From positions 868,001 through 932,000 of the forward strand of contig SPDT01000009.1 in assembly GCA_008477525.1 (NCBI GenBank): 64,000 bases of DNA, read 5' to 3'. This DNA comes from Hypomyces perniciosus. Taxonomy: Eukaryota > Ascomycota > Sordariomycetes > Hypocreales > Hypocreaceae. The notes under the pieces were generated by a model. It worked only from the letters and a program-made list of their open reading frames with translations. It did not search any database and was not told the origin of the DNA. This document shows positions 11,171-33,269 of this stretch, one piece after another. A program made the position numbers and the translations under genes. The first letter of the stretch is position 1. Each line of letters starts with the position of its first letter.

Positions 11171-11179
11171 TAATAAAGA

Positions 11180-14100
11180 TTTACTATATTTTAAATTAAA
11201 GATAATAATTAAAGGATATTAGTTATATATATTAGTAGATAGTAGAGCGATAAGTAATTTTATTGCACCTATAACTGTAAATTACTTACAGTTACTTTAA
11301 AAAGAGAAAACTAAACTATATTAACTTTATTAGGCAGAAAAAGGAGCCTTTATATATAATAACGGATAGGTTAAGCGAAAGACTGATTATTTTAAACTTG
11401 AAATCGCTAAATGTAAAGGAGCAGTTCCTTGCAATATAGCGAATATTAATAGGTATAACATTATCTTAGTTATCCTTGGTTAAAATGCAATAACCCTGAT
11501 ATTGACTGGGAAAACGGCTAGCTTTATTGGCGCGATAATAAAGCTTCCCTAGCGATTAAAACTATCAGAAAGGCTCTAGCCGCAGGGCAGAAATCCTATA
11601 TAGAACCCCTAGGTATACTGAAAAAAGGAACTAAGAAAATTACCTTTAATTTAATTATAGAAACAATCTACCTAAAAGTAAGACTTAAATAAAGTAAGGG
11701 AAAGGATAGATAAATCTAAAAAATAATTGCCTTTTTACAGAAAGTATTTAATAATATCAACAAAATGCTTAAAATAAAAAGCCTTAAAATAATAGCGTTA
11801 TTAAAATAGCTGTAAAATATCCTTAAAGAATACTAGAAGTATAATAAGCTGTTTAAGGAAATACTTAATATAAAATTACTAGAATACAGTTAATAGGACT
11901 ATATAATTAAGCTTAAAGATAGTGTAAGTATTACCTTTTATAAAATTTATAATCTAAACGAAAAAGAGCTTAAAAGCCTACGCGACTATTTAGATAATAT
12001 ATTAGCTAAAGGGTATATTCAACCTTCTTTATTAAAAGCAGGCTATTTTATTATATTTATATTAAAGAAAAGAGGTAAATTATAGCTAGTTATAGACTAT
12101 TAACAGTTTAATAAAGCTACTGTTAAAGATAAAACCTTATTACTGTTAATTATAGAATTGCAGGATAGACTATATAGAAAAAAGTAGTTTATAGCGCTAG
12201 ACCTTAAAGGCGCTTATAACTTTATTTAAATTAAAAAAGGATATAAATAAATAACTGCATTTTAAACTAAATATAGCTTATTTAAATACCTAGTTATGCC
12301 TTTTAGTCTTATTAATGCCCCTGCAATATTCTAGAAAATAATTAATAATATATTAAAAAAGTATTTTAATATCTTTATAGTTATTTACCTGGATAATATC
12401 CTAATCTTCTCGGATACCTTTAAAGAATATAAGGTATATATCTATAAAGTATTATAGACACTATAAAATACTAAACTATTTATAAAACTAAAAAAATGCA
12501 AATTCTATATATAGAAAATCACCTTTTTAAAGTATATTATTACCTTTAAAAAAATTCGCATAAATCTATTAAAAGTATAAGCAGTAAAAGACTAGCCTAT
12601 ACCTATAATAGTTAAGGAAGTTTAAAGCTTTTTAAGACTTGCTAACTATTATTAATAATTTATTAAAAACTATAAAAGTATTATATAAACTCTCTATAAA
12701 CTTACCAAAAAGGATTAAAAGTTTCTATAGGCATTAAATATATAAAATATATTTAATAAATTTAAGCAGTTTATTTTAAAAAAAACCTATATTTATTATA
12801 TTTAACCTATTTAAAGAAATAGAAATTAAAATAAATGCTTTTAACTTTACTATAAAAGCTTAATTAAACAAAAGGATAAAAATAGTAAACTATACTTTAT
12901 TGCCTTTTACTTTAAAGTATTATATAGCGCAGAATTAAATTACCTGATATATAATAAGGAATTCCTCGCTATTATTCTTATATTTAAAGAATAGCGATAT
13001 TATCTATTAAAAGGAATATATAAAGTTAAGGTATATATTAACTATAAGAATATCGCGTATTTCGCAATAGTTTAATAACTTTTTAGGAGGTAAATCTACT
13101 ATGCAGAATACCTTTTAGAATTCGACTATATCTTAATTTACTAGAAAGGATCTGAGAATAGATAAGCAGATACACTTAGCAGATAAATTAACTATAACTA
13201 GGGAAAGATTAAGTATATTAGGCAGATTTTAGAATAAACCCTTAAAAGATATTATTAATAAATAGCACTTTAAGCTATATATAAGGTATTTAGTGATAAT
13301 ACTATACTTTAATGTATTAAAGAGTACTATATTACCTGGGATAATAATAGATTCTTAAAAGATATAGAGTTTAATAAAAAAAGAATTTAATAATAAAATA
13401 AAAAGATTTAAATTTTAGATAAACTTTAGAAAAATATAGTTATAAAAGTTTATTAATACCTAATATATAGATATAAAGGTATTTATAAGACCTGTAAATA
13501 AGTTTAAAGGTATTTTAAGTTTTAAGGGCTTAAAAAAGTAGTATAAGATATTATTTCTCGCGATATAATTTATAGAATAGTTAAACCCTTGAAATATAAA
13601 CTATACAGTAAACTTTAACCTTTACTAATACCAGAATAACTATAAGAGTTAATCTTATTAGACTTTATTATTAAACTATTACTATTTATTAAACTAGGAT
13701 TAAAGATTAAATATAATAGTATTTTAATAATTATAGATTAATTTATTAAATACGCTTACTTTTTTCTATATAAAGAAGTAATAGATGCAGAAACACTAGC
13801 TTATATATTCTTACAATTCGTTGCAGTTAACTATATAATCTTAGCTGAGATTATTTCTAACTAAAGGTTAACCTTTGCGTTTAAATTCTAGTAAGCACTT
13901 ATAAATTAGTTAGGCATAAATTATAAGCTTAGTACTGTATATTACCTATAGATAGACAGTTAAACAGAATGCATTAATTAGGTTATTAAAGCTTATCTGA
14001 GAAGTTATATTAACTTTAATTAAGACGATTAGGTAGAGAAGCTATTAATTGTATAAATGTCTTATAATAGCGACATTTCAGAGTTAACCGGATTTAGCCC

Positions 14101-14260
14101 TATATACACTAATTATAATTTTACGCTAAATATATATAAAGCGCTAAAAAAAGGCCTATATATCGATAAAGTATAAATTAAAGCTAAACATATAAAGCAG
14201 TTATATAAAGAAATGCAGGTATATTTTCACTTATTTTACTAAAACCTAATAACTTTTATA
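11180..14260 (+). pseudogene. RIP-decayed Ty3/gypsy pol (PR, RT, RNase H, IN)
   Basis: Domains appear in Ty3 order on the plus strand in broken frames. Protease near 11,235 reads ILVDSRAISNFI, where DSG has become DSR. RT near 12,090-12,430 includes VIDY-QFNKATVKDK, FIALDLKGAYNFI, VMPFSLINAPAIF and YLDNIL (from YLDDIL). RNase H lies near 12,810-13,200 (AELNYLIYNKEFLAI, YWKGSENR-ADTLSR). Integrase lies near 13,690-14,200 (IDQFIKYAYF pattern, AEIISN, LGINYKLSTVYYL, IDS-TECINQVIKAYLRSY, MSYNSDISELTGFSP). Trp and Arg codons are stops and Asp/Glu are Asn/Lys throughout, the RIP spectrum. The element is long dead. Confidence 0.8.
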
Positions 14261-14840
14261 AAAATAAGTATAATATATAAAAGCACTTTTAGACTTTAAT
14301 TATAAAATTATCCACTATAAAAAAAAATAAAGTATAGCTAAGCTAATATTTTTAGTAGAAAAGCTAATTATTATTAAAAAATCCCTAAATTTATAGAATA
14401 AATATTCTAATTTAATAAAGAAAGATATTTAAAATAAAGATAACTTAACTGAATATTTAAAGTTAAGAAAGATAACCCTTTTATTAATGAAATCTAAAAA
14501 TAGTTTTTATAAACTAACCTTAAAAATTAATTAAAAAAATTAAAATTGATAATATAGGAAACCCTATAATAAATAATAAAATATAGGTACTTAAAAAACT
14601 ATATAAAAAAGTAATATAAAAAGTCTATAAATATTTAGTTTATAGATATAAAAGGATTATAAAGATACATTAGTAAATATAATAATATTATATATTTAAA
14701 AATATAAAGAAATAAGTATAAGAAATAATTAATAAATATCTTATATATAAAAGAATTAAAATAGGGAAATATAAACCCTATAAATAACTATAACTACTAC
14801 TAGTACTAATTAGAAACTAGGAATCTATCTTATTTAATTA
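14261..14840. other. AT-rich decayed DNA between two integrase remnants
   Basis: Stops in all frames. It probably contains the C-terminal part of the first integrase and the junction to the next remnant; no motif is secure. Confidence 0.35.
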
Positions 14841-15900
14841 TATTATAGACCTACTACTATTAAGAGAACCTATAATAAGAATGAAATTTAATATTATATT
14901 TATAATAATTAACTTTTAAAATATATTTATTTTATCCCCTATTATAAGGTAAATAATATTAAAGATCTAGCCTATATATTTATAAAAACTATAGCTAGTA
15001 ATTAAGGATTATCTATAGAAATTATATTAAATTAAGAATTAATATTTATATCTAAATTCTAATAAAACTTAATAAAAAGCTTAAGTATAAATTATAAACT
15101 TAATATAACTTATTACTTATAAATAAATAGATAAATAAAATAAATTAACTAGATTATTAAAATATATTTATATTACTATATTAATCTATAATAAAATAAC
15201 TAGATTATTTACTTACTAGTTATATAACTATTATATAACTACTTTATATTAAAATTAATAAAGGTTATGCTAATATATATTAATTATAGATATACCCCTA
15301 ATATATACTAACTAATATATAAAAAATAAATGCTAATAAAGCTATCTTATAAATAGAAAATATAATTAAATTATATAAAAAAATATAATAATAACTAGAA
15401 TTTATCTAATAAAAAATAGTTAAATATATAAATAATAAATAGATAAAGATATCCTTTAAAAAAGAAAATATAGTCTACCTATTTTAATATATTTTAAAAA
15501 GTAAAAAACTAAATATTAAAATAATATAACTAAGTAATAAATTAGATTTTAAAAAACTAGAACCTTTTAAAATTATTAAGAAAATTATAGAAATTAATTA
15601 TAAACTTTTATTATTAAAAAATATTAAATTATATCTAGTTTTTTATATTTTATTATTTAAAAAAATACTATAAAATAAAAATATAGAAAATATTATTATA
15701 AATAAAAGTATAATAAAAGTTGAAAAAGAAAAATATAAAATTAAAGTAATTATTACTATAAAACTAGAAAATAAAGAATATAAATATCTAGTAAAATAAA
15801 AAAATTACTTTAATATTAAAAATATCTAGGAACTAATTATAAACTTAATATACTACCTAAAAGAACTATAATAATTCCACTAGTTTCTAGAACTAAAAGA
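14840..15900 (+). pseudogene. Second RIPed Ty3 integrase-chromodomain remnant
   Basis: A second integrase pattern follows the first: FISKF--NLIKSLSINYKL near 15,040-15,100, then a run matching TYHPQTDGQTERINQ with most Trp/Gln/Arg/Gly altered, and YINYRYTP near 15,280. Near 15,780-15,840 the phrase EYKYLVK-KNYFN is the core of a chromodomain (YLVKWKGY). Having a second integrase without RT shows this is a fragment or a nested copy. RIP-type changes are at least as heavy as in the upstream element. Confidence 0.6.
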
Positions 15901-16930
15901 CCTAGATTTATAAAGTTATTATTAAGCCTAAAAAAAACCTAATCTATTTTAGCAAATACCTCTAATAACTAGAAATTAGTTACTATTACTACCTCCTAAA
16001 TAAATAAAAAAGGCATTATACTATCCTTTTTATCCAGGCCCTATAAGCCCTATTTAAAAAATTCAGTCTAGTATTTATACACTATTTTCTTAATATAATA
16101 GATATAGTTTAACTACCTAGCTATCTATATAATCTATAACTAGAACTTAGCTAAATAGAAGTAAAGACTTTCTAGTCTCTTACTAACTTTATCTTCTTCC
16201 TATTTAAGTTTTTTCTATTATTTAAATACCTATATAACTAAAGGAATTATTAGCCTAGAAAAATACTAGGATATAAGAAAAATATATAGAATAAAGTAAC
16301 TAGTATACTATTACAAGAATATCTTTAATAGATATATTTACTATATCTTAAAGAATTATTAACTATATAATAAGTTAACTTCTTATAAAAATAAAAAGTA
16401 TAAGGTATATTAATAAAATTACCTTTAGAAAGAATTAAAAAAGTAAGTAAAGTATATTTATTAAATTTATAAATATAAGATTTAGAAATATAGTCTATTA
16501 TAATATTAGTATAGTAAAATAGAAAAAAAAAGAAAATAGATTTATAAAGGACTAATAAATCTTAAGGATAAGACTAATAGAAAGGGGATATTATATTACA
16601 ACCTAACCTTATACTAGACCTAGTTATAAGACTTTAAGAAAACCCTAGTAAATAGGACTAATAAAAATAAAATCACTAGCTAAGTTATAATCCTTAAAAG
16701 GGATTATTACCTAAATAATAATCCAGGAATAATAGGATTATTATAATCCAAGTAATCTAAAGTATTGTTCTTATATATAAAACTAGATAAATAATAATTA
16801 TTTAGTATAATTACTTAACTAGTTATTAATAACTGTATTTACCTAAACTACCTATTTAATAGAATTATAACTAAAAACCTTATTGCTTAGACTATATCCT
16901 ATTCCCCTACTAATATAAACCCTAATAAGT
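15901..16930. other. AT-rich RIP-decayed DNA, unresolved
   Basis: No recognisable gene. Part may be 5' sequence of the LINE whose 3' end follows, or the tail of the preceding Ty3 remnant. Confidence 0.4.
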
Positions 16931-17322
16931 TTATCCCTTAGAAACCCCAACCCTAATAACCCTATTAAGTATTATAGGACCAGGCATATTATAATTAAAG
17001 AGGGAGGGCTACTTTATAGAATATAAGATAGTTAGACCTTTTTTATTAAATATCCCTTTAAAAGAAACCTCCCTTTTTTATCTATTTAGATTTATAGGAA
17101 GCAAGGCCTTCTAAAAACTAGTAAAAGAAGCAGATCTTTATAGTCCCCCCTTAATAGAGATAGAATAACTATACCTAGATTAAAACCCTTTTATTTATAA
17201 ATTAAAACTTAATAAATAGTAATATAAGCTACTAGCTCCTAATCTCCTATTACCTATAAGGGATTTATATAACTAGCTTATTTAGTAGATATAAATAATA
17301 AAACAAACAAATAAATAAACAA
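16930..17322 (+). mobile_element. Tad-like LINE 3' end, RIPed copy
   Basis: From about 17,080 onward the sequence matches 49,550-49,791 base for base apart from C-to-T/G-to-A differences: the stretch around GGAAGCAAGGCCTTC, the UTR piece AAGGGATTTATATAACTAGC, and an (AAAC/AAAT)n tail ending at about 17,322 where normal-GC DNA begins. It is a 5'-truncated non-LTR retrotransposon and forms the sharp right edge of the RIP block. Confidence 0.7.
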
Positions 17323-18358
17323 GAGCCGTTAATGAAATTAGCAGCTTGTGAAAGTATTTGGGATAAAATATAGCAAAAAGATTTTATATTTCACCTTAGA
17401 ACACTCCAGACCCTCGACCACGAGATGATAAATCAACAAGCTATTGAAATCTGTCACTCGACCCTTAATGCCCACTTCCCTTAGGCAATGGCCACTTATG
17501 AAACTGCAGTAGAATAAGACATGTCCTTGCCGTAAGGGTAAAATATTCGGCTGCTTGAGGCTGGAGCAATAGGGGACGTTAGGACCTGACTGAAGAGAGC
17601 AAGTAGTGACTATCAAGGCTGTGGCAAAGATGAGCTGTCAGGGTGAGAAGGGGCCAAGCTCGGTTGTCCATCTAAAGTCAGGGCAATTTCTAGATAATGG
17701 CTGGGTTGCCGGCTCTCTGGAGGCCGATATCCTACTATTGAAACAGGCTGGGAAGATCTCTAGTCCACATCCCAGCCTCCCACTAATCGTATCTATTATA
17801 TAACAGGGGATTTAACAATCTTATCTGAAAGCATACTCATGTTCCAATTGAATATTGTTGAAAAGCTGGCTGATGAAGTACGCTAGATCGCAGGTAAACG
17901 TGCTAGCCTTAAAAACCTTTCCACTTCCAAGCCAGTAGGCAACGCTATATATAGCGGTTGAGACGCTGGCTAGCCAAGTCCACCAGGGCATCTCTAAAGG
18001 CCGCTCCACTGGCCCTGTTTTCCCTATGCTATGTTTCGTTTCCGGAACATTCGGTGTATTTTCACTTGCCTTCTTTATCCGATCTGCGGTCTTCATCTTG
18101 GAAGCTGTTGTGCTACCAGGCTCGAGTCATCGATCTCAATTCCCGACAATAAAGCATCCACGAATGCTGTCACAAGGACTCCCTCCATGTAAGCCAAGCT
18201 TTACTTTCGCTTAGATGTTAGCCAACCCTCGGAAGCTTTCCGATCTGGGTGTTGCTCGTCGAACACCTGCCCCCAAATATTAAAATCACCCTCAGCTTGT
18301 ATATAATGAATCAAATGTCATGTCGTGCAAATTTCGATGCCATCCCTGATAAGAGTAT
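17323..18358. other. GC-normal region downstream of the MFS gene
   Basis: Normal composition begins abruptly at 17,323. Two minus-strand frames of about 90 codons (17,338-17,616 and 17,821-18,096) are open; the second has one Trp-rich hydrophobic stretch (WWTWLASVSTAIYSVAYWL). Neither matches a family I know and both could be chance. The 3' UTR of the MFS gene would end here. Confidence 0.4.
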
Positions 18359-20809: not shown

Positions 20810-22249
20810 AAGGGGTCGTTTTATTATCTTTAGTATATAAGTACTCTTAGCTTTGGCGCTATATACTAGTCGCCCTAGCTTATAAGTAATAATCTTTAGC
20901 CACTTCCTGTATAAGTAGTATATTATTATACTTTAGCACTAGTATAGGTATATATAGCTGTTATTTAGGTAGGTAATCTTTAAGTAATATATAGGGAGAG
21001 TTTATAGTTTAAAAAATTAGTAAATATATAAATTATTACTATAATATATATAATAGCTATAAAATAGATAGGGATATTATAGATAATATTAAATAATATT
21101 ACCTAGGTTATTTAATAATAATTTATTAAAGTTTATATATTATAGTTATTATAAATAATTAATATATAATACTATTATTATATATATTATTATAATACTA
21201 ATAATACTAATGTTATAACTTTTTCTAGGTTATTTAAATTAGTGTTTTTACCTTATTTAAAATTAGCTAACCTTTTTCTTTCTATAGAAAATAGAAATAA
21301 TAGCTTATTAAACTAAGATTTATTTTTATTATTATAATACTTTAAAAAAGGCCTAGGTTAAAGGCACTATTACTTTTACTTAATAGTAAAAAAATATTAT
21401 AATTATAACTTTTTATATAATAAAATCTTTTAGTTTTACTAAATTAGTAAAATATATAACTATATAATTATAAAGTTATTTAATAGGAAATTTTATAATA
21501 AACTAAAAGAAACTTATAATAAAAAAAAACCTTTTTAATAAAACCTAAATAAAATTAAAGAACTATTATAGTTTAAAAGCTTTAAAGCTTGCTATTTAAC
21601 TTATATCTAGTTTATTATAATAGCTAGAATAAATAGAGAAATTAGCTTTTAAATAATTAAATATATTTTAGATATATAAAACTAAAGAAAATATATTATA
21701 TAATTTAGGTTATATATCTTTTATTATTATATTAAGTAATAAATAAAATTTATTTATAAGTCTTTTAAGTTTAAACTAGTTAAAGAAAATTATTATAATA
21801 TTCTTTATTTTAATAAGTAATATACCTTTTATAATAATAATTACTAAATCTATGTTTTTTAAAAGCTAGGTAAGAGATATTACTTTAACTATTTCTATAA
21901 ATAGCTAAGCCTAAAGCTTAAAGAGAAATATTTTAATATTTAGTTTTAGAATATAATTAGCTATAATTTTGAAAGTAATTTTTATAAATATTAGATTTTA
22001 ATAAATAATATAAGGAAAATAACTTTAACTTATTATTATAATTATATTTTTATAAAGATAGTTAAACTATAGCTGAATTAAAAAATAGACTTTATTTTAA
22101 AAGAAAATTATAATTTAAAGTATATATTATTAATAATAAAGAAATATAAAAATAGCCTAAAAAATTCTTAATAATTAAAATTAAAATTAAATTAAATTTA
22201 TTATTAAAAAATTAAAATAAAAAAATAAAAAATAAATTTTATAAAAACA
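20810..22249. other. AT-rich RIP-decayed DNA, unresolved
   Basis: Stops in every frame, long TpA-rich runs. Probably an old transposon, but no domain can be recognised. Confidence 0.45.
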
Positions 22250-23105
22250 AATATTTTAATTAAATTATTATTTATTATTTTTATTAAAGGATTATAATAA
22301 TAAATAAAATTATAATAAAATTAATAATATAATAAATAAAAAAGATACAATAAAATAAAGCTATATCTAGCTTTAAATATAATAATTAAATAATAAAATT
22401 AATATAATAAACTATTAGTTATATAATATTAAATTAAAGCTTTATTAAATAAAGTTTTAAAGCTATATTATATTATGCTTTTTTAAAATAAAGCTTTATA
22501 TAGCTAAACTTTATATTATATAAAAGAACTTTTTTTAATAACTTAATATTATTAGAAATAGAGTTTATTTTACTCTAGATTATAAAATAAAAACCTAGTT
22601 AGCTGCTCTCTAAAATAATAAAAACTTTTTCCTTTAGTTATAACTAAAGGTTTTATATATAATTAAAGAACTAGCTATTTTATATTAACTAACTATTATT
22701 TTTATATTTAGATAGTTAATAATAAAAAAAATTACTTCTTATTATTATTATTATATATTAAATAAAATAAGATTTATTATTTTATAATTTAATAAAGTAG
22801 AATTACTAACTAGATTGATAGTTAATAATAATTAATAAACTAGACTAAAAACCTAGTTTAATAAAAACTAAAATTAAAAAATTAAAAATATTTATTATAA
22901 TTAAAAAGAAAAGAAATAAAATAGAAGTTTTTATAAATTATTTAAATTATTTTAAATATATAAAAAATAATAAACTATTTAGAAAATAAAAGTAAATATA
23001 TAAAGTTAGTAAAAGGCTTTAGAATAATAGTTAATTAATTAAATAATTAATAGCTATATTTTTAAATAACTATAGCTAATATAATATAATTTAAAAATAC
23101 TATAA
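22250..23105 (+). repeat. Long direct repeat D, copy 1
   Basis: About 850 bp that recur at 23,350-24,245 in the same orientation, sharing in order the ATAAAATTATAATAA start, GCTATA-CTAGCTTTAAATAT, the block around AAAACCTAGTTAGCTGCTCTC and TAACTAAAGGTT, and the end TTTAAAAATA-TATAATA. Copy 1 carries more A/T than copy 2. Confidence 0.6.
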
Positions 23106-23349
23106 TAGGTTTTTTATTTCTTTTATTTAAAAAGGAAAAACTATTTTAATATATTTATAAAAATATTATTATAATTATTAAAATTGATAATTAATAATAT
23201 ATAATATAAAAAAACATAAAATAAGATTATTTAAATAAAAAAAATAAAAAATATATAAAAAAAAAAAAAAAAAATTTTTCAAAATAATATTATAATATTT
23301 ATTAATATAAATAATATTATAAAAATTAAATAACTTTAATAAAAATAAT

Positions 23350-24245
23350 AATAATAAAATTAATTAAGTTATTATTTACTACTTTACTAGAGAACTAGAA
23401 TAATAGATAAAATTATAATAAGATTAATAAAATTAATAATATAATAAATAAAAGAGATATAATAAAGTAAGGCTATACCTAGCTTTAAATATAATAACTA
23501 AATAATAAGATTAATATAATAGACTATTAGCTATATAATATAAAATTAAAGTTTTATTACATAAAGCTTTAAAACTATATTATAAAAAGCTTCTTTAAAA
23601 TAAAGCTTTATATAGCTAAACCTTATACTATATAAAATAACTCTCTCTAGTAACTTAATATTAGTAGAGATAGAGTTTATCTCTAGATTATAAGATAAAA
23701 ACCTAGTTAGCTGCTCTCTAGGATAAAGAGAACTTCTTCCCTTAGTTATAACTAAAGGTTATAATTAAGAAACTAGCTACTTATTGCCCTTACTTATAAT
23801 TAGCTTTTTTATAGTATCTACTTATAAGCTTAAGTTAAGCTTACTTACTTATATATTAACTAACTACTATTTCTGTATATATATTAAATAAGGTAAGACC
23901 TATTACCCTATAACTTAATAAAGCAAAGCTATTACTTGGATTTCCTATATATAGCTAATAATAGCTAGTAAACTAGACTAAAAGCCTAAGTTAATAAAAG
24001 CTAAAATAAAGAAATTAAAAATACTTATTATAGTTAAAAAAAGAGAGATAAAATAGAAGCTTTTATAAATTATTTAAATTATTTTAAAGATATAAAAAAT
24101 AATAAACTATTTAAAGAATAAAAGTAAATATATAAAGCTAGTAAAAAGCTTTAGATTTAATAATAATTAATTAGTTAGATAGTTAATAGCTATATCTTTA
24201 AATAACTATAGCTAATATAATATAATTTAAAAATATTATAATATA
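23350..24245 (+). repeat. Long direct repeat D, copy 2
   Basis: Direct partner of 22,250-23,105, separated by about 245 bp. The 80 bp just before it (23,270-23,350) recurs at 24,980-25,060, and its last 120 bp recurs inverted at 24,525-24,645, so this block has been rearranged or nested. It could be a pair of LTRs around a deleted interior, or a tandem duplication. Confidence 0.6.
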
Positions 24246-24524
24246 TCTTTTATCTTTTATCTAGAAGGGATTAAAATAATTATATAATAATTTTTATATT
24301 TTAATATTTTTTTATAAATTAAATTAAATATCTTTATTTTTTTATTATTATTATTATAATAAATTATATTAATAAAGGATTTATAAAATTAAATTTATTT
24401 AATTATAATAAAAAATAATAATTAATTAATAATACAAATATTTTAAATTAAAAAAATCTAAATTTATTATTAATAATTTTAAATTTTAATAAAATTAATA
24501 TAATTTTATTAAATAATATATTCC

Positions 24525-24645
24525 CTCTTAAATAGAAAAGATAAAAGACCTATTATAGTATTTTTAAATTATATTATATTAGCTATAGCTATCTAAAGGT
24601 ATAACTATTAATCTTTATTTTCTATTTATCTAGCCTATATCTTAA
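24525..24645 (-). repeat. Inverted copy of the D repeat end
   Basis: Reads AAAAGACCTATTATAG, then TTTTTAAATTATATTATATT and AGCTATAGCTAT, the reverse complement of the end of D (23,000-23,110 and 24,170-24,250). Confidence 0.55.
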
Positions 24646-24659
24646 AATGTAATATAGAA

Positions 24660-24725
24660 AGAAAACACTTAGGCAGAATAGCTTAGGCAGCTAAATATAG
24701 CCTAACCAAACCCTAACCCTAAAAA
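24660..24725 (+). repeat. Repeat family R, copy 3 (tail only)
   Basis: Matches the R tail: GGCAGAATAGCTTAGGCAGC followed by AGCCTAACCAAACCCTAACC, with telomere-like CCCTAA units at the very end. Confidence 0.55.
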
Positions 24726-26161
24726 ATCAGTTTCAACTTTATTAATAAAGCTAACTATATCTCTATAAACTAGATAACTTACTATAATAATAACTATATA
24801 ACCTATAAAAATAATAAAGATAGTAATAACTACTATTCTAAAGCCCCTAAAAAAAATAAACTATCTTTATAATAAAATATAGAGAAAGAAGATTTATAAT
24901 AATCTAAAAGGAATAAAGATTCTATTATATTAGACCTTTTAATAAAAAAGATATATTAAAAGAAAAGAAATAACCCATTAGAAATAATATTATAATATTT
25001 ACTAATATAAATAATACTACTAGTAAATTAAATAACTCTAGTAAAGATAATAAAAATAAAACTGATAAATATAAATATTATATAGGAAACTAAAAAGAAA
25101 CTAACCTTAACTACCTATCCTAGTATTAAAAAGGATAAATAATAGATAAATTTAGCTTATAATATATAAATACTAATAATTAAGTTTAATAAAAAGAAAT
25201 TTAGTAAGCTATGTATAAATTTCTAAATTAACTTAAATAGATTTAACTAAAAAGAATACTAATAGAAATAGCTTTTAAAGCTATTTCTATTAATAATATA
25301 ATTTAATGAGAAATAAATTACTATCTATAACTTAATAATAATATATAAATTAACCTATAACACCCTTAATATAATAATATATTATAAATCTTATATATAA
25401 TATATAAATATCTAATATACTTAACTACTAAAGCTATTAATAATATATTCCCTATATAAATATATTATATACCTATTATAACCCTATATCTTAAGGAAGA
25501 TCTAAAGGAATATTAAATTATATCCTAATACTATCTATTTAATATAGCCCTTTTGAAACTAAAAAATAAAATATAACCTAACTATATTAATAGCTCTATA
25601 GAAATAAAAAACTACCTAATATAGAATTGCCCTTAGTACTCTAACTAATATAAAGATAAGTAATTATATAGATACTAATCCTATATTTTAAAAAGTCCCT
25701 ATAAATATAAAAGGAATGTTTATAGTAAATATAAAGACTAGAAGTTAGAATTATATAAATAACTATAAAAATACCTTAATAATCTAGCAAAAACATTCTA
25801 GAGTAATAATTATAATACTATAAATATAGAGAATTATATAGCTAATAACTATTATAAATACACTATATATAAATAAGAAATTAAAAGGCTATATTAATAT
25901 TTAAGATATTAAAGGTTTAACTTCAAAACCTATAAATATAGATAAATAAGTAATATGAAAAAATACTACTAACTAAAGTATATTAAATGTATACTAGAAA
26001 CTTGCAAACTATATATATCTATAAGGCTCTATAAATATAAATATATAGAATAATATAACTATATTAGATATACCCTATATAGCAAATAAAAATAGAAATT
26101 TTAATAGCTAATATAAAGACTATATAATAATAGGTTTAGTTTCTAGATTTATAAAAGAGAA
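24726..26161. other. AT-rich decayed element, host of the Ty3 insertion (left part)
   Basis: RIP-type sequence without intact frames, continuing after the retrotransposon at 33,275-33,490. Less eroded phrases near 25,540-25,660 do not give a family. Confidence 0.45.
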
Positions 26162-26166
26162 CTAAC

Positions 26167-26428
26167 TGTCAGGAGACCGGAAGCTCCGGAGCTCTTGTGA
26201 CATCACATGGGCCGGAATGCATATGTAAGAGCAACTGTGGTCCCCGAAGATATAGAACTTCAGAGACCAGTAAACGACTGCTGCTACACCTAACTACTAG
26301 TTTCTGGCTTGTTACCTGCTAGTTAGCATCTATCTCTCCTCCAAGTGACTGCTCTTCAACCTCCTCTACTCTTCCCTAGGGTCGCAGCCCCTCGCCCGAT
26401 CCGTCTGCCCCAAAGAGGGTCTCTGACA
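26167..26428 (+). repeat. 5' LTR of the Ty3 element
   Basis: Starts TGTCAGGAGACC and ends GGTCTCTGACA, giving short inverted termini. It differs from the 3' LTR by one base (CTCGCCC here, CTCACCC there). A TGG at 26,432 shortly after it is a possible start of the tRNA primer-binding site. Confidence 0.95.
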
Positions 26429-26480
26429 TACTGGTCTCTCACTATTCCCAGCAAGGGTGGGAAGACCATTGGAGTTGAAG

Positions 26481-27653
26481 ATGCCTTTGGCGGCGAATGA
26501 CCAGCTCACTCCTAGTGAGGAGGCTGTATCTCAGACGCAAAGACCTTTGAGTGGAGCTACTCCTCCAGATCGTCAATCGGGCCTTCTGGACAGTACTTTG
26601 CTTACAGAAGAAGAACTTGATGCTCGCATTCGGCAAGCAAGAGACGAGCAGCGAGTGCGCTTGAAGAGGAAATATTTGGACACTCTTCTTCGAGGGGAGA
26701 ACCCTTCTTTTGAACTCCCAGAGACTGAAGGTTTATCGCCTACAACTAGCTTATCACACGCTGATAGTTCGAAACGACCTTATGAAGGCGATTGGGGCAA
26801 AGTGAAAATTCAAGCTCCTCGTTATGAAGGAAAGTCTTGGGCAGAACTACAGACTTTTCTTACTATTATTGAAGGGCAATTTGAATCGTCTCCTTACACT
26901 TTTTCCCAAGCAACCCGCAAGATTACCTATGCTGCTTCCTGCTTGAAAGGAGATATTCAACGGCGATGGGTCAGCTATTTCAGAGAAAAAGGCGGATCAG
27001 CCGGATCGATTACTTGGGACGAATTTCGTCAATGGCTTAAGGACAACAATCGCGATGGCCCAACCAGGTGCCACGAAGCGACTTCACAGATCTTTCGCTT
27101 ACGTCAAGCTGCTGGACAGAATTTTCAGTCGTTCCTCTCCCAATTCGAGATCGTTGAGAGCGAGCTCCCTGAGACGACTCCTCCACAGCTTAAGATTTGT
27201 ATGTTCTTGCAGTGCCTTTCCCCTGCAATGAATGAGCAGATACTTCACCATGGAATCCCTACGACCTGGCAGGAGTTGATTCGTGCCGGTACAATCGCTG
27301 AGACTCTTGTGCGTGGCCGTACTGGTGACGCAAGTGGCTCCCAACAGGAATCTCGATCTCAAGGAAGATACGGAAAGACCGGACCTACTAGTCAGCGGGG
27401 ATTACACCAGGATCACGCCGCTGATGTTTCAAAGAACACAACAACCGAAACACCCGGAGGTTCGAGAGAACAGAGAAACCTCCCCAGCTCGGTAATTTGT
27501 TGGAAATGTGGTGGTCCTCACTACAAGACCTCCTGCCAAGCTCCTGATTGCACGAAGTGTAATAGCAAGCACCACTCCACCGAAAAGCACGATAACCCCG
27601 TTCAGCCACACCTCACTGGCGGAAATGCTGAACCCGCGGTTCGTCGAGCCTAG
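26481..27653 (+). CDS. gag: Ty3 Gag polyprotein
   Basis: An open frame reaches upstream to 26,457, but that codon is GTG; the first ATG is at 26,481 (MPLAANDQ), giving 390 residues. The central part (about residues 100-270) has the Ty3 capsid pattern: WAELQTFLTIIEGQF, YAASCLKGDIQRRW, WDEFRQWL and FRLRQAAGQNFQSFLSQFE. Near the C-terminus lies CWKCGGPHYKTSC, a zinc knuckle with three rather than four residues between the second Cys and His, followed by CTKCNSKHH. It ends at a single TAG after which protease continues in the same frame. It forms the particle shell and binds RNA. Confidence 0.9.
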   Translation: MPLAANDQLTPSEEAVSQTQRPLSGATPPDRQSGLLDSTLLTEEELDARIRQARDEQRVRLKRKYLDTLLRGENPSFELPETEGLSPTTSLSHADSSKRPYEGDWGKVKIQAPRYEGKSWAELQTFLTIIEGQFESSPYTFSQATRKITYAASCLKGDIQRRWVSYFREKGGSAGSITWDEFRQWLKDNNRDGPTRCHEATSQIFRLRQAAGQNFQSFLSQFEIVESELPETTPPQLKICMFLQCLSPAMNEQILHHGIPTTWQELIRAGTIAETLVRGRTGDASGSQQESRSQGRYGKTGPTSQRGLHQDHAADVSKNTTTETPGGSREQRNLPSSVICWKCGGPHYKTSCQAPDCTKCNSKHHSTEKHDNPVQPHLTGGNAEPAVRRA

Positions 27654-28394
27654 GAATACGATTGCCATGTGGATCCACCCATGAGACGACCGGAGAAGAT
27701 GCGGCTAGGTGGCCACTGGCAACATGTGAATACCCTGTTTGATCCCGGCAGCGATGTTCACATTATCTCTTCACGATGGAGGGATCAATTAGGAAGTCTA
27801 TCACCGGCTCCTAAGCTTACCGCTATTTTCCCAGGTGTTTCTGCTATGACCTATGGCTATGCAGATATACTTGTAAAGATAGTTGACGACTGGGGAGTAG
27901 AGAAGAAGTGGCTACTCCATTGCGTTGTCGCTGATAGCCTAGAAGACTTTGTTCTAGGAAGACCTTGGTTTCGGGAAGCCGATCCTACCCTTTCCTGGAA
28001 GTATAATCGATGGAATTATCCTTTAACTGGGGATTCTATCACCTTAATAGCCTCTAAAAAGCAGCTACAACAAGCTATTAAGGAAGCCCGAGTAGCTTTT
28101 GTATTAGCAACTGAAAAGAAGCTGGAAGTTGGGTTAGAAGCTTCGGAAGACCTACCATCTCCCGACTTAGACGAAGCTACTTCCCTAGAAGACCACAAGT
28201 CGGCCTTGTGTTCAAAATTGCTTCCTATATATCATGACCTCACTAGTGTCTTCTCTGCAGAAGAAGCTGCCAATGCATTAGCAAGTCGACAGCACGCTAT
28301 TGAGTTAGAAGATGGGAAAATGCCTCCGTGGAGTCCTATCTATAACCTAGCACCTAAAGAGCTGGAAGCTCTCCGCGAGTATTTGGAAAAAAAG
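27654..28394 (+). CDS. pol: Ty3 protease and start of RT, in the gag frame
   Basis: Open in the same frame as gag after the TAG at 27,651-27,653. There is no ATG until 27,681, so expression probably needs stop-codon readthrough or reinitiation. Protease motif TLFDPGSDVHIIS (27,735-27,775) is the DPG-S variant of the DSG active site, and FVLGRPWFREADPTLSW near 27,950 is the usual downstream block. The segment ending AANALASRQHAIELEDG and SPIYNLAPKELEALREYLE is the N-terminal entry to RT. The frame stops at 28,448, but homology leaves it at an A-run, 28,388-28,394. Confidence 0.85.
28388..28394 (+). promoter_or_regulatory. A AAA AAG heptamer at the frame change to RT
   Basis: In the protease frame the codons read GAA AAA AAG, so the heptamer A AAA AAG is in the right register for -1 slippage. 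A -1 step here moves exactly into the RT frame (ALQNAWIRRSVSPAGAPVIF). The A-run could equally be a two-base insertion specific to this copy. Confidence 0.45.
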
Positions 28395-30919
28395 CACTAC
28401 AGAATGCATGGATTCGGCGGTCTGTTAGTCCTGCAGGTGCCCCTGTAATCTTCGTACCGAAGAAAGGCGGTAAACTGCGAATGTGCATCGATTTCCGTGC
28501 TCTGAACAAGATAACTCGCAAGAACCGCGCTCCTTTACCATTGATTTCGGAGATTCTTGACAGACTCTCACATGCTAAGATTTTCACCAAGCTTGATTTA
28601 AAGGACGCATATCACCGGATACCTATCCGCGAAGAAGACAGGTGGAAGACGGCATTTCGCTGCCGATACGGACACTTTGAGTGCAACGTTATGCCATTCG
28701 GCCTTACGAATTCCCCTGCAACTTTTCAGCAATATATCAATGATACGCTACAAGATCTGGTTGATCTTATCTGCATTGTGTATCTTGATGATATCCTGAT
28801 TTATAGCCGCACCCTCGAAGAGCATACGCAACATGTTCGCCAAGTGCTTGAAAAGCTGCGAGATGCAAAGTTGTACGCCAATATCGATAAATGCGTCTTT
28901 CACGTTACTTCAGCACCTTTCCTTGGATACGTTATTACGCCCAATGGAATTGAGATGGAACAGTCACGCGTTCAAGCTATTGCTGAGTGGCCGGTACCTA
29001 GAAGCGTCCACGACATCCTTGTATTTCTAGGATTTACAGGGTTTTACCGTCGCTTTATCAAAAATTACAGTAAAATTACAGCACCCTTAACGGATCTAAC
29101 TCGTGGGAAGCGAGAAGGGTCTTTGCAGCTAGAGCCTAGCGCTCTTGAAGCTTTTCAACAACTGAAGAAAAAGTTTTTAGAGAAACCTGTTTTAACACAT
29201 TACGACCCAGAGGCGCCGATTCGTATAGAGACAGACGCGTCAAACTATGCGATTGGGGCAGTACTAGCTCAGTACCAGCGAGATGCCTGGCACCCTGTGG
29301 CGTATATATCAAGAAAGCTAAGTGGTTCTGAATTACGTTATCATACCCCTGATACTGAATTTCTTGCTATTGTGGAAGCTTTCCGAACGTGGAGACACTA
29401 TCTGGCTTATGTGGGTACGGAGATTCAGGTCATAACAGACCATCTCAACCACCGTTACTTCACAGATAAGCAGAAGCTCTCACGCCGGCAGGCAGAGGCT
29501 CTTGATGAGCTAGCTCCGTTTAATTTTCGCATTGAGTACAGGCCGGGGAAGTTTAACCCTGCTGATGCCTTGTCTCGACGCCCTGATTTTCATGATCTTG
29601 CTGAGATTGAAGAATCACAGCGAGGCTATATGTCAATGATTTTGCAGCGTTTTCATGGCACGGAAGCCGACAGCCTATATGAACCAGAGGGATCTGCAGC
29701 AGCGCACTGTAGTGACCAGGAACATATGAGGTCGCCTGTAGACGGGAGCGTTGCTCCAGCGTCGCCCCAGGTTAGGGGATGGGGACTAGATGCTACTCAG
29801 CAGATAGCCCACCTGCAGAGTGTAGTGGCCAGAGTTGTAACTGCTGGTTCGCAGGTTGCACGGCAGACTACCGCAGGTTCGCCGCCAGAACTACAAGAGT
29901 CCTTGCGTTCAGCTGTCCTACAAGCTCAACGAGGAGATTACTTCGTTCAGCAGAAGGTTCGGAGCCAGGGAGTGGTTGGTACGTCTCGTGGTAACGACTG
30001 GGTCGTCGGTGATGACCAGCTAGTTCGCTACCAAGGCAGAGTCTATGTGCCGATAGGTCTTCGTACTGAGATTTTGATGCTACTTCATGATGATCCAACT
30101 GCTGGACACCAGGGAGTTAGTCGTACTTTGAAACGCATTATGCTGACCTATTATTGGCAAGGCATGAAGCGAGATGTTAAGCGTTATGTGTCTACATGTC
30201 ACGTTTGCCAGACAACGAAGGCGAGAACCCATCGACCTTATGGCGAACTTGCTTCGTTACCGATACCAGAAAGACCCTTTAGAGAAATTTCTATGGATTT
30301 TATTACGGATTTGCCGGAAATCCCAAACCATAAAGGCAAACACCCGTATGACACGATTCTTGTTATCGTTGACCGATATACGAAATATGCCTTGTATATA
30401 CCTACAACAGCGCATATTACAAGCAACGGGGTCGCTGACCTTTTTATAAAACACGTTTATCCAATTTTTGGAATACCACAAGGAATCGTCTCTGACAGAG
30501 ATCGATTGTTTAAATCTGGATTTTGGCGAAGTTTCTGTCACCTACTTGCTTGTAAACGGCGACTTAGCACCACTTTTCACCCACAGACTGATGGTCAGAC
30601 CGAACGGCAGAATCAAGCCTTAGAGCATTATTTACGTTCTTTCTGCAGTAAACAACAGGATGACTGGCTACAAAAATTGTCTCTCGCTCAGTCTACGTAT
30701 AATAGTGCCGAACATTCTGCAACTGGCTACTCACCAGCTTTCTTACTGCTTGGCTACGAGCCCGACGCTCCAGGTCATGATGGATTAACCTATTATGGAC
30801 ATTGTGCCGACGCTATTACTAGGGTGGAAGAGCTTCGAGCTACCCGTGAAATAGCTGAACAAACTCTACGACAAAGCCAAAAAGAATACGAGAAGTGGTA
30901 TAAACACTCACCGACTTGA
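28395..30919 (+). CDS. pol: Ty3 reverse transcriptase, RNase H and integrase
   Basis: One long frame with every catalytic motif intact. RT: MCIDFRALNKITRKN, IFTKLDLKDAYHRI, VMPFGLTNSPATFQ and YLDDILIYS (28,780). RNase H: IRIETDASNYAIGAVL, SELRYHTPDTEFLAI, QVITDHLNHRYF and FRIEYRPGKFNPADALSR. Integrase: zinc-binding HDDPTAGHQGVSRTL..CHVC (30,090-30,210), MDFITDLP, ISDRDRLF-type VSDRDRL and TDGQTERQNQ, the D-D-E triad. It copies and inserts the element. It ends at TGA 30,917-30,919 just before the GPY/chromodomain part, which continues in the +1 frame. Confidence 0.93.
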
Positions 30920-31484
30920 GAAGAAATTCGCAGTTGGCGACTGGGTATTAATTTCTACAAAATACCTGAAACTCCGGCGACCTAGCAAGAAACTCGCTGA
31001 AAAGTACATTGGTCCTTACCAGATTGAACGCCAAATTGGAACAAGTGGACTGGCATACCAGCTTTGTTTCCCATCTTCTGTCAAAATTCATAATGTTTTT
31101 AACGTTATAAATCTTGAGCCATATCATAGCCGCGAGGGAGAACCTTCTGAGCCAACAGATCACCCCTTCAGCGCTGAAGAGACATTTGAAGTTGAGAAAA
31201 TTGTTGATCATAAGTATAAGGGGATACGGCGCTTATACTTAGTCAAGTGGAAAGACTACCCAGAGACTGATAACACTTGGCAAAAGAAAAGTGATTTTAC
31301 CGATACTGAGTTAATTCAAGAGTATGAGCAGCGACTTGCTAGTGAACGACCAGCTACTACTACTAAGCGTCACGAAGTTGAAGGGAGCAGGGTGCTGCGC
31401 AGTTCCAACCAGTCAATTGAAAACAGAAAACGAACTCGCAACAGCGCACGTCTTGCAGCAAACAAGCGGCGACACTACTACTAA
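30903..31484 (+). CDS. pol: Ty3 integrase C-terminus and chromodomain (+1 frame)
   Basis: Open without its own ATG from the end of the RT frame. It reads LEKKFAVGDWVLISTKYLKL, then LAEKYIGPYQIERQIG (GPY module), IHNVFNVINLEPYH, and a chromodomain FEVEKIVDHKYKG..YLVKWKDYPETDNTW at about 31,185-31,285. Chromodomains of this class bind methylated histone H3K9 in related elements (chromoviruses); whether this one does is inferred. The one-base frame change near 30,903 is best read as an indel. The C-terminus is basic (RKRTRNSARLAANKRR). Confidence 0.88.
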   Translation, partial: NTHRLEKKFAVGDWVLISTKYLKLRRPSKKLAEKYIGPYQIERQIGTSGLAYQLCFPSSVKIHNVFNVINLEPYHSREGEPSEPTDHPFSAEETFEVEKIVDHKYKGIRRLYLVKWKDYPETDNTWQKKSDFTDTELIQEYEQRLASERPATTTKRHEVEGSRVLRSSNQSIENRKRTRNSARLAANKRRHYY

Positions 31485-31491
31485 GTGACAG

Positions 31492-32493
31492 CTAGTTCTC
31501 TTCATCTCCAAACAGCACCTCATCGCAATCTTCCATGGTAGTAGGACACACCCGAGGAAATGCAGGAATTTCAGCACGCTGGCATATCACACAATAATTA
31601 GCTAAGAACTGCCCATTACGAATGAAGAAACACATACCGGAACAAGAGTACGCATAACAGCAGCAATGGTGGCGAGAGAGTTTGCCTGATCGAGAGCAAC
31701 TTGAAGGTTCAAGCGCTCCAAGTTTTGGCGGCGACGCTGCTCGTTCGCTGCAGACTCTTTCTCTTTTCGCTCCTTGGCTGGGCCTGACTTCTGTCGCATC
31801 GATGTGAGGTTCTTTTTGCATTGGACTCGTAGTGGTGCTATCACAAACTGGGTTCTTGTTAGCCGCTATTATACAATGAAGAAGCAACACCGAAGCACTC
31901 ACCTCGTCGACAGGGAACTCTTGGGAACATTGAACTAATGCCTTGGCGGCATTGACAAATTGACGGGCGATTGGATCGCACGACTTATTGTTTGAGAAAC
32001 AATAAAAACATTTCTCAGAAGCAGCTAGCACGACACGAGTTAGCATGGAAAGTTTTGCTTTCTGATTGCATGAAACTCACATTCATCATCACAGCACCGG
32101 GGAGGTTCTTTTCCTGACTTCGCATTCTATTCGATCAAGAGGTTGAGACAACGACGACATGGCGCGGGGCGTCTGTGGCGAGTTAGCAGTGGCCAATGGT
32201 TGTATCTGTACGAGAACACCTACTGGGTTAAGTTGCCAGCGGCTTTGCGGCGTTTTGCTGGCAAGGGCGTGGCAATCTCAGGGGGAGGGTGTTCCAATGG
32301 AGACGCAACCGAGATGGCACTGGCTGCAAGCAAAGACGGGCTTGCCATGTCGAGGTTCTCGGATACCGCAGGATCGCTATCATTTTCTGAAACCGGGCTG
32401 TGAGCGTGTTAGATGGGAAGTCGTAGTGAGGAGTCAGCTACAGGAAACTCACGAAGCGGCGACGTCCATCGCAGAAGGAAGAAGAGAACTCAT
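31492..32493 (-). CDS. Spliced antisense cysteine-rich gene inside the Ty3 element
   Basis: Six exons on the strand opposite to gag-pol: 32,493-32,453; 32,397-32,224; 32,172-32,081; 32,024-31,903; 31,847-31,638; 31,578-31,492. All five introns (51-59 bp) are GT..AG, with CTAAC or CTAAT shortly before the acceptor, and the exons join in phase over 726 nt (241 residues). The start MSSLLPSAMD is preceded by GCCACC, a good initiation context. Exons 3-4 encode PCRRC, a CC pair and CFYCFSNNKSC, a Cys pattern like fungal zinc-binding domains of the DUF3716 kind (similarity by eye only). Exon 5 is charged and probably coiled coil (KERKEKESAANEQRRRQNLE); the C-terminus is acidic (MEDCDEVLFGDEEN). One TAG (32,127-32,129) interrupts exon 3 and would be CAG before a C-to-T change. 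Function unknown. Confidence 0.72.
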
Positions 32494-32507
32494 GGTGGCA
32501 GGCCGAA

Positions 32508-32577
32508 CTAAGAAAAGAGAACTGCTATCGCACAATAGGTTAGCTGGTAATAAGAAGCGAGAGGAAGGAATACTTAC
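32508..32577 (-). other. 5' leader intron of the antisense gene
   Basis: GTAAGT at 32,577, CAGCTAACC branch-like site, and TTTTCTTAG at 32,508 on the minus strand, directly upstream of the short leader TTCGGCCTGCCACC and the ATG at 32,493. Confidence 0.6.
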
Positions 32578-32990
32578 AGAGAAAAGCGCCCACAGGGAGA
32601 GAGAGGGCGAGAGAGAGAGAGACGAAGAGGAAGAAAAGAAGGAAAAGAGAAAAGAAAAGTGGGGCAAGAATGCATGCAGTGCACTCGCACGCGGTGGTGA
32701 ATTGGGAGAAGAAAAACAGAGTGAATCACTTGTGCGTTAGCAGCGAAGGGTTGGCTTGTTACGTGGGATTTCTCTGCTACCCTCTAAGTCCAATTGCACG
32801 GAAGTGTGCTTTTGAACTACGAGGTCAGAAACTTTTTAGGCTACCAAGCGTACGCCGAAGTGTTTGAGTCTGGGGCTTAAAGAAGCGTCTGTATAGGAAA
32901 TGGTTGCTGCTTAGCACGGCAATGGGGTGTCAGAAGCCGGAAAGGAGCTGGTTGGACATGGGGTCCTCGCCGGCATCGAGGTCGATGCCA
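32578..32990 (-). promoter_or_regulatory. Probable promoter/leader of the antisense gene within the element
   Basis: On the minus strand this region is strongly pyrimidine-rich (long CT runs at 32,590-32,660), a common feature just upstream of transcription starts in filamentous fungi. No conserved sense coding sequence is present. Open frames here are low-complexity. Confidence 0.4.
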
Positions 32991-33007: not shown

Positions 33008-33269
33008 TGTCAGGAGACCGGAAGCTCCGGAGCTCTTGTGACATCACATGGGCCGGAATGCATATGTAAGAGCAACTGTGGTCCCCGAAGATATAGAACT
33101 TCAGAGACCAGTAAACGACTGCTGCTACACCTAACTACTAGTTTCTGGCTTGTTACCTGCTAGTTAGCATCTATCTCTCCTCCAAGTGACTGCTCTTCAA
33201 CCTCCTCTACTCTTCCCTAGGGTCGCAGCCCCTCACCCGATCCGTCTGCCCCAAAGAGGGTCTCTGACA
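33008..33269 (+). repeat. 3' LTR of the Ty3 element
   Basis: Identical to the 5' LTR apart from one A for G (CTCACCC). Followed by the target duplication CTAAC. Confidence 0.95.

What the first reader, a model, noticed from the sequence alone, without database searches (positions are those of the whole stretch)
31492..32580. A six-exon antisense gene carried inside a Ty3/gypsy retrotransposon
Between pol and the 3' LTR, on the opposite strand, five introns of 51-59 bp all have GT..AG ends and a CTAAC/CTAAT branch-like site, and the exons join to 726 nt in one phase with a GCCACC-ATG start; a sixth intron sits in the leader. Sense transcription of the retroelement should not see these as introns, so they survive reverse transcription, which fits a gene transcribed from its own promoter. 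The product is Cys-rich with a possible zinc-binding site (PCRRC...CFYCFSNNKSC), a charged coil and an acidic tail. Such a gene could be a captured host gene or an element-encoded regulator. One TAG in exon 3 means this copy may be dead while others are not. To my knowledge this is not a standard part of Ty3 elements, but I cannot search.
Basis: partly seen in the sequence, partly recalled or inferred. Interest (0 to 1): 0.88.

Follow-up and report, generated by a model that had tools for sequence, protein, structure and literature searches.

The report
Antisense spliced gene inside a retrotransposon
A fungal retrotransposon carries, back to front, a spliced six-exon gene for a cysteine-rich protein; a second, very different element in the same genome has the same gene in the same place, so it looks like a long-standing accessory gene of unknown role.

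Summary
A 726-nt, six-exon antisense frame with one internal stop lies between pol and the 3' LTR of a Ty3/gypsy chromovirus. Candidate introns far exceed chance (9; 600 shuffles: mean 0.2, maximum 4). LTRs differ at 1 of 262 sites. Exon 5 matches 66 places in the genome. In 35 other copies aligned, nearly every difference is C>T/G>A biased to CpA, as in repeat-induced point mutation, and all 35 have lost the start codon. Siblings therefore cannot show selection or settle the stop. The decisive find is a divergent gene (L072) with introns 3 and 4 at the same codons, exon 4 of equal length, the same six cysteines and an acidic end. It lies antisense, 424 bp from a different repeated LTR (431 bp here). 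A third remnant (L084) shares introns 3-5. Differences between families lean to third codon positions, moderately. I read it as a resident accessory gene, probably a zinc-cluster nuclear regulator (inferred). Precedents: brtn of Boty, plant antisense ORFs. No protein relative was found.

The parts
26167..26428 (+). 5' LTR (262 bp, TG..CA), preceded by target duplication CTAAC
   Evidence: LTR repeated genome-wide, 41 matches listed from 40 scored of 268 candidates
26457..28448 (+). gag and start of pol, one frame, with an in-frame stop between them at 27651-27653 that 16 of 17 aligned copies share
28481..30919 (+). pol open frame: reverse transcriptase, RNase H, integrase
   Evidence: Pfam RVT_1, RT_RNaseH_2, RT_RNaseH, Integrase_H2C2 above cut-off, rve below cut-off
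30909..31484 (+). 3' end of pol: Tf2-1-like SH3 and chromodomain (about 31185-31334)
   Evidence: Pfam PF24626 5.4e-17, PF00385 1.4e-14
31492..31578 (-). antisense gene exon 6, acidic tail and stop
   Evidence: acidic end also in L072
31579..31637 (-). intron 5 (59 nt)
   Evidence: L084 has a GT..AG stretch with CTAAC here
31638..31847 (-). exon 5, basic segment and long helix
   Evidence: 66 genome matches; relatives in L072 and L084; model of this exon alone has helix 27-68 of 70 residues, mean pLDDT 73.7, pTM 0.38, no alignment
31848..31902 (-). intron 4 (55 nt)
   Evidence: same position and phase in L072 and L084
31903..32024 (-). exon 4 (122 nt), CxxCx6C half of the cysteine cluster
   Evidence: 122 nt in L072 and L084 too
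32025..32080 (-). intron 3 (56 nt)
   Evidence: same position and phase in L072 and L084
32081..32172 (-). exon 3, first half of the cysteine cluster; holds the one internal stop
32173..32223 (-). intron 2 (51 nt)
32224..32397 (-). exon 2, Ser/Pro/Ala-rich with a KRRK basic patch
32398..32452 (-). intron 1 (55 nt)
32453..32493 (-). exon 1, ATG in GCCACC context
32525..32577 (-). leader intron (53 nt; alternative acceptors at 32522 and 32508)
   Evidence: leader intron with a GTAAGT donor at similar distance from the LTR in L072
32600..32659 (-). pyrimidine tract (97% C/T) upstream of the leader intron, likely part of the antisense promoter (inferred)
   Evidence: highest value of the element on this strand; similar tract in L072 (best 60 nt 87%)
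33008..33269 (+). 3' LTR, followed by target duplication CTAAC

Best explanation
[quoted passage not shown] Its introns face the wrong way for the sense genomic RNA, so they pass through reverse transcription uncut, while the antisense transcript loses them. The product is a small protein with a Ser/Pro-rich start, a basic patch, a six-cysteine cluster, a basic long helix and an acidic tail. That layout suggests a zinc-binding, probably nuclear and dimerising, regulator of the element's own expression or of its relation to the host. Shown: anatomy, genome-wide distribution, RIP-type destruction of siblings, and conservation of exons, intron positions and layout in a divergent element. Inferred: transcription, splicing, zinc binding, nuclear action, regulatory role.
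For: Intron signals far above shuffles. L072: same intron 3 and 4 positions, exon 4 exactly 122 nt, 34% identity to the window protein in alignment A1, with C77, C80, C98, C108, C111, C118 invariant; antisense, leader-intron donor 424 bp from a repeated LTR against 431 bp here; pyrimidine tract kept. L084: introns 3, 4, 5 kept. Third-position excess of differences: A-B exons 4+5 56/47/74 (P 0.011), B-C 25/20/43 (P 0.0018), A-B exon-5 core 14/8/27 and for transversions 6/3/16 (P 0.0017). Intron interiors compare at chance level in 6 of 7 pairs, whereas exon 4 beats its shuffles for A-B and B-C. The conserved frame in exon 5 is the spliced one, not the unspliced ORF. Exon 5 models as one helix, residues 27-68.
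Against: No RNA or protein evidence. The window copy has a stop in exon 3; all 35 aligned siblings have lost the start codon and carry 9-24 stops. Exon 4 alone shows no third-position excess for A-B or A-C (P 0.29, 0.20), A-C exon 4 does not beat its shuffles at DNA level (score 3.0, maximum 6.0), pooled A-C is borderline (P 0.052), and pooled transversions are borderline or absent (A-B 0.050, A-C 0.041, B-C 0.47). The tests are not corrected for their number, and the exon-5 core was chosen after seeing the alignment. Within family A, transversions show no selection: 63 events in 726 exon nt against 28 in 276 intron nt, codon positions 19/18/26. No Pfam match up to E=10 and no protein relative in the 5.8-billion-sequence collection. 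The regulator role rests on composition and cysteine spacing only. L072 exons 1 and 2 were not identified.
Confidence: 0.6

Rival explanations
1. A host gene captured by the element (transduction) and carried as a passenger, without a role in the element.
For: Spliced, ordinary fungal-looking gene; introns kept as expected if captured in reverse. L084 is a single, un-RIPed relative in a GC-normal region; self-comparison of the 4.8 kb around it shows no repeat pair.
Against: A passenger should not keep intron positions, exon-4 length, cysteines and distance to the LTR across two families with unlike LTRs. L084 is itself broken: a frame break in exon 5 and exon 3 not recognisable; a pol 3' fragment lies about 0.4 kb from it on the gene's own strand, so its surroundings are not plainly host either. 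No host protein relative found.
Confidence: 0.15
2. The antisense transcript, not the protein, matters: it makes double-stranded RNA with the sense RNA and dampens the element.
For: Antisense orientation and promoter-like tract; such a role is discussed for plant antisense ORFs (PMC7264820).
Against: A non-coding role does not need conserved cysteines, reading frame or third-position excess.
Confidence: 0.1
3. The relevant product is another ORF here: the 184-aa unspliced antisense ORF 31492-32046 or the 193-aa sense ORF 32159-32740.
For: Both are open.
Against: The exon-5 match to L072 and L084 is in the spliced frame; the unspliced ORF's best matches are where it coincides with exon 4 (its other rows have E 0.066-0.79), and the sense ORF has one match, E 0.001, in a charged low-complexity stretch of L072. 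Neither has a Pfam match up to E=10. Open paths of up to 205 codons occur in 300 shuffles.
Confidence: 0.05
4. Not exclusive of the best reading: the stop was already in the amplifying master, so this family spread without the protein and the gene is a relic of an older working one.
For: 32 of 35 aligned siblings have a stop at that site and the other three have transversions in otherwise ruined frames.
Against: RIP saturates such sites: 96 of 187 CpA sites are changed in at least all but three copies, so siblings cannot tell. The splice signals and the rest of the frame are intact in the window copy.
Confidence: 0.3

Closest known systems
brtn of Boty-like retrotransposons (Botrytis cinerea; Zhao et al. 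2011, Virology; paper not held, seen only as cited in PMC7264820, PMC8365987, PMC4227169, PMC5987419)
   Same: Extra antisense gene in a fungal LTR element whose gag-pol has a CHROMO domain; listed among antisense ORFs between pol and 3' LTR; missing from the last annotation of the B05.10 genome.
   Different: Protein relation could not be tested: the sequence was not at hand, and searches with the window protein and with A1 found no relative at all. Whether brtn is spliced I did not see.
Plant antisense additional ORFs between pol and 3' LTR (Grande gene23, RIRE2, Retand TRP28, PvRetro13)
   Same: Position, strand, presence in most copies, unknown role; gene23 has its own promoter and a nuclear product (PMC7264820).
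   Different: Plant elements; Retand is a non-chromovirus lineage, and the held text of that paper does not contain the word intron (PMC11963269). No Pfam domain found here.
HBZ, antisense gene of HTLV-1 (seen as mentioned in a passage of PMC11963269)
   Same: Nuclear product of an antisense gene of a retroelement, as an analogy of working.
   Different: No sequence relation claimed or tested; different host kingdom and element class.
GAL4-type Zn2Cys6 fungal regulators (pattern and order of parts recalled)
   Same: Six conserved cysteines, second half CxxCx6C, followed by a helix and an acidic tail.
   Different: First half is CxxC then 17 residues instead of about 6 (recalled); no Pfam match up to E=10.

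Membership tests
Ty3/gypsy chromovirus | RT, RNase H and integrase in that order, then a chromodomain, between LTRs | tested here: met
Antisense additional ORF between pol and 3' LTR | Lies between pol and 3' LTR on the opposite strand | tested here: met
   pol frame ends by 31484, gene 32493-31492, LTR from 33008
Antisense additional ORF between pol and 3' LTR | Present in most copies of the family | tested here: met
   35 aligned copies (of 39 other places; the other four not fetched) have the whole module; 27 of 35 keep the 726-nt length and 8 differ by 1-3 nt; exon 5 at 66 places. Elements without the gene would not have been found by these searches.
Antisense additional ORF between pol and 3' LTR | Own antisense promoter | not testable with these tools
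   only a pyrimidine tract and leader intron seen
brtn | Protein homology to BRTN | not testable with these tools
   paper and sequence not held; protein searches empty
GAL4-type Zn2Cys6 cluster | Match to a zinc-cluster profile | tested here: not met
   no Pfam family up to E=10
GAL4-type Zn2Cys6 cluster | Six cysteines with CxxC..C..CxxCx6C order | tested here: inconclusive
   six cysteines conserved between window and L072, but first-half spacing too long

The most novel reading that the evidence does not exclude
A chromovirus lineage carries its own spliced transcription-factor-like gene (zinc cluster, dimerising helix, acidic tail) on the antisense strand, which acts in the nucleus on the LTR or on host silencing and so lets the element spread in a genome that destroys repeats by RIP.
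Probability: 0.15. Interest if true: 0.85.

Novelty: new variant of a known kind. Interest (0 to 1): 0.55.

Why it matters
Antisense accessory genes of LTR elements are known, but their role is open. This one is unusually gene-like (five coding introns plus a leader intron), and its structure is kept across two elements with unlike LTRs in one genome, which makes conservation testable. It also shows how a retroelement could carry an intron-rich gene through reverse transcription: only the antisense reading would be spliced. Such genes are easily left out of annotation, as noted for brtn (PMC8365987).

Tried and rejected
Protein relatives: window protein (E up to 0.001) and window+L072 profile (E up to 10), none; the search needs shared exact words and predicted proteins of similar length, so a spliced gene in unannotated fungi would be missed. 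Viral contig scan with pol found nothing. PDB search with the profile gave six rows, best E 0.29, taken as chance. Rfam: none in the window at gathering score. Selection within family A: rejected as a test because differences are mostly RIP-type and the rest look post-insertion. The first exon-5 codon comparison used a faulty offset and is replaced. Reading L084 exon 3 by eye: dropped, because DNA at positions 406-762 on its gene strand matches other places in the genome. Chromodomain fragment beside L072: weak (best 9.6e-5) and 1.6 kb from the gene's stop in AT-rich DNA, so I rest the L072 placement on the LTR, not on that pol. Paper searches. Of the papers cited I read PMC7264820 parts 1 and 2 of 3, and passages found by word in PMC11963269, PMC8365987, PMC4227169, PMC5987419 and PMC3248453; all others only as listings.

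Full report
What is there. The window holds one Ty3/gypsy element with LTRs at 26167-26428 and 33008-33269, which differ at one of 262 positions, and a 5-bp target duplication. Its pol encodes reverse transcriptase, RNase H and integrase, then a Tf2-1-like SH3 and a chromodomain, so it is a chromovirus. Among the 120 closest pol relatives listed, those whose organism is named are fungal (Purpureocillium, Hirsutella, Chaetomium, Monosporascus); most, including the best 27, name none. It is 726 nt long with one stop in exon 3. A leader intron at 32577 follows a 60-nt stretch that is 97% pyrimidine on the gene strand.

More than chance. A strict intron rule (donor, CTAAC/T branch, acceptor, 45-66 nt) finds 9 candidates on the antisense strand and none on the sense strand. 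Two sets of 300 shuffles give a mean of 0.2 and maxima of 3 and 4. The length of the open path by itself is not unusual.

Siblings. DNA search of the genome gave 45 matches at 40 separate places, the window's included (only 40 of 80 candidates were scored). Exon 5 alone matched 66 places at E<=1, the window, L072 and L084 included. I aligned 35 of the 39 other places. Lengths are nearly constant (27 of 35 keep 726 nt, 8 differ by 1-3 nt), but 35 of 35 have lost the ATG and carry 9-24 stops. Each differs from the window by 118-397 C>T or G>A changes, 4-19 changes the other way and 2-12 transversions. The C>T or G>A changes hit CpA most (33-89% of sites) and CpC least (3-31%). This is the signature of repeat-induced point mutation. 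Of 20 loci fetched long, 15 have LTR matches at both ends and 5 at one end. So the siblings show that the module was in the element when it spread, but they cannot show selection: transversions run at 63 in 726 exon nt and 28 in 276 intron nt. They cannot settle the stop either: 32 of 35 have a stop there and three have transversions, yet 96 of 187 CpA sites are equally saturated. Thirty more loci were fetched and compared; most are the same RIPed family, a few are mosaics or more diverged.

A second family. One of those loci, L072 (C16:3487575-3488851, GC 51%), is not a RIPed copy but a divergent gene. By DNA search it occurs at one place, apart from three matches of 38-57 bp. Its exon 4 is 122 nt, as here. 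Introns 3 and 4 sit at the same codons and phases. All six cysteines of the cluster are kept, and so are the basic segment of exon 5 and an acidic end. Several stops in its exon 5 suggest light RIP. Exons 1 and 2 were not identified. Its leader-intron donor lies 424 bp from a 230-bp LTR, against 431 bp here. That LTR resembles the window LTR in little beyond its tips and recurs in the genome, with seven further copies at full or nearly full length at 82-97%. A PPT-like tract before it makes the gene antisense to the element. A RIPed chromodomain fragment lies 1.6 kb on the other side, too far to claim as the same element.

A third remnant. L084 (C5) keeps exon 4 (122 nt), part of exon 5 and introns 3, 4 and 5, is not RIPed, and has a frame break in exon 5. 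The 4.8 kb around it hold no repeat pair by self-comparison; LTR-tip-like hexamers occur three times and were not followed. A pol 3' fragment lies about 0.4 kb from exon 5 on the gene's own strand, not opposite to it. L084 may be an old element remnant or a host relative; I cannot tell.

Selection. Between families (A window, B L072, C L084), differences lean to third codon positions: A-B exons 4+5 56/47/74, P 0.011; B-C 25/20/43, P 0.0018; A-C 41/37/53, P 0.052. Exon 4 alone shows it for B-C only (P 0.017). Pooled transversions, which RIP does not make, are weaker: A-B P 0.050, B-C 0.47, A-C 0.041. In the conserved core of exon 5, picked after alignment, transversions are 6/3/16 for A-B (P 0.0017) and 3/3/11 for A-C (P 0.008), but 3/3/2 for B-C. 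The tests are not corrected for number. Intron interiors align at chance level in 6 of 7 pairs. The exon-5 match is in the spliced frame and not in the 184-aa unspliced ORF. Taken together this is moderate evidence for a protein under constraint before the copies died.

How it most likely works. Sense transcription from the 5' LTR makes a genomic RNA in which the introns are inverted and invisible, so they are copied into DNA. Antisense transcription from the 3' side makes a spliceable mRNA. The protein has a Ser/Pro/Ala-rich acidic start, a KRRK patch, six cysteines with CxxCx6C at the end, a basic segment, a 42-residue helix (modelled from exon 5 alone, no alignment, mean pLDDT 73.7, pTM 0.38) and a tail with net charge -6. 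This resembles the order of parts in zinc-cluster regulators (recalled), but no profile matches, so I claim resemblance of working, not membership. Transcription, splicing, zinc binding and nuclear action are all inferred.

Known kin. [quoted passage not shown] PMC4227169; PMC8365987). A Monilinia transcript similar to BRTN is reported (PMC5987419). I could not get the BRTN sequence. Within the searches named I saw no description of this gene.

Verdict. A real, element-resident, spliced-looking antisense gene; a new variant of a known kind. The copy in the window has a stop in this gene and two frameshifts in pol that are absent from the 17 and 20 copies that aligned there, of 20 tried, so it is unlikely to work as it stands.

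Noticed in passing
window 26429-26439 and 26262-26272: The 11 bases after the 5' LTR are the reverse complement of a stretch inside the LTR, which suggests self-priming of reverse transcription as in Tf1 (recalled) rather than a tRNA primer.
   Followed up: partly
window 27651-27653: An in-frame stop separates gag and pol; 16 of 17 aligned copies keep a stop there, so it may be a read-through signal of the family.
   Followed up: partly
window near 28.39 kb and 30.89 kb: Two pol frameshifts at A-runs are private to the window copy (absent in the 17 and 20 copies aligned there); real damage or assembly error.
   Followed up: partly
window 31492-32493: At eight sites in exons and introns the window carries T where 12-35 of 35 copies carry C on the gene strand; all eight changes are on that one strand and in mixed contexts.
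   Followed up: no
window 10001-18000 and 22001-26000: AT-rich stretches (GC 13-30% per 2 kb), with repeats around 22117-25019, lie on one side of the GC-normal element; likely RIPed DNA.
   Followed up: no
L053 (C3:1134876-1136143): Only exon 5 onwards matches family A; upstream is different DNA, part of it resembling an LTR in reverse, so the locus looks like a mosaic.
   Followed up: no
G000, LTR search: The window LTR has 268 first-look candidates (40 scored); the best others are 97-98% identical, far less mutated than the internal region.
   Followed up: no
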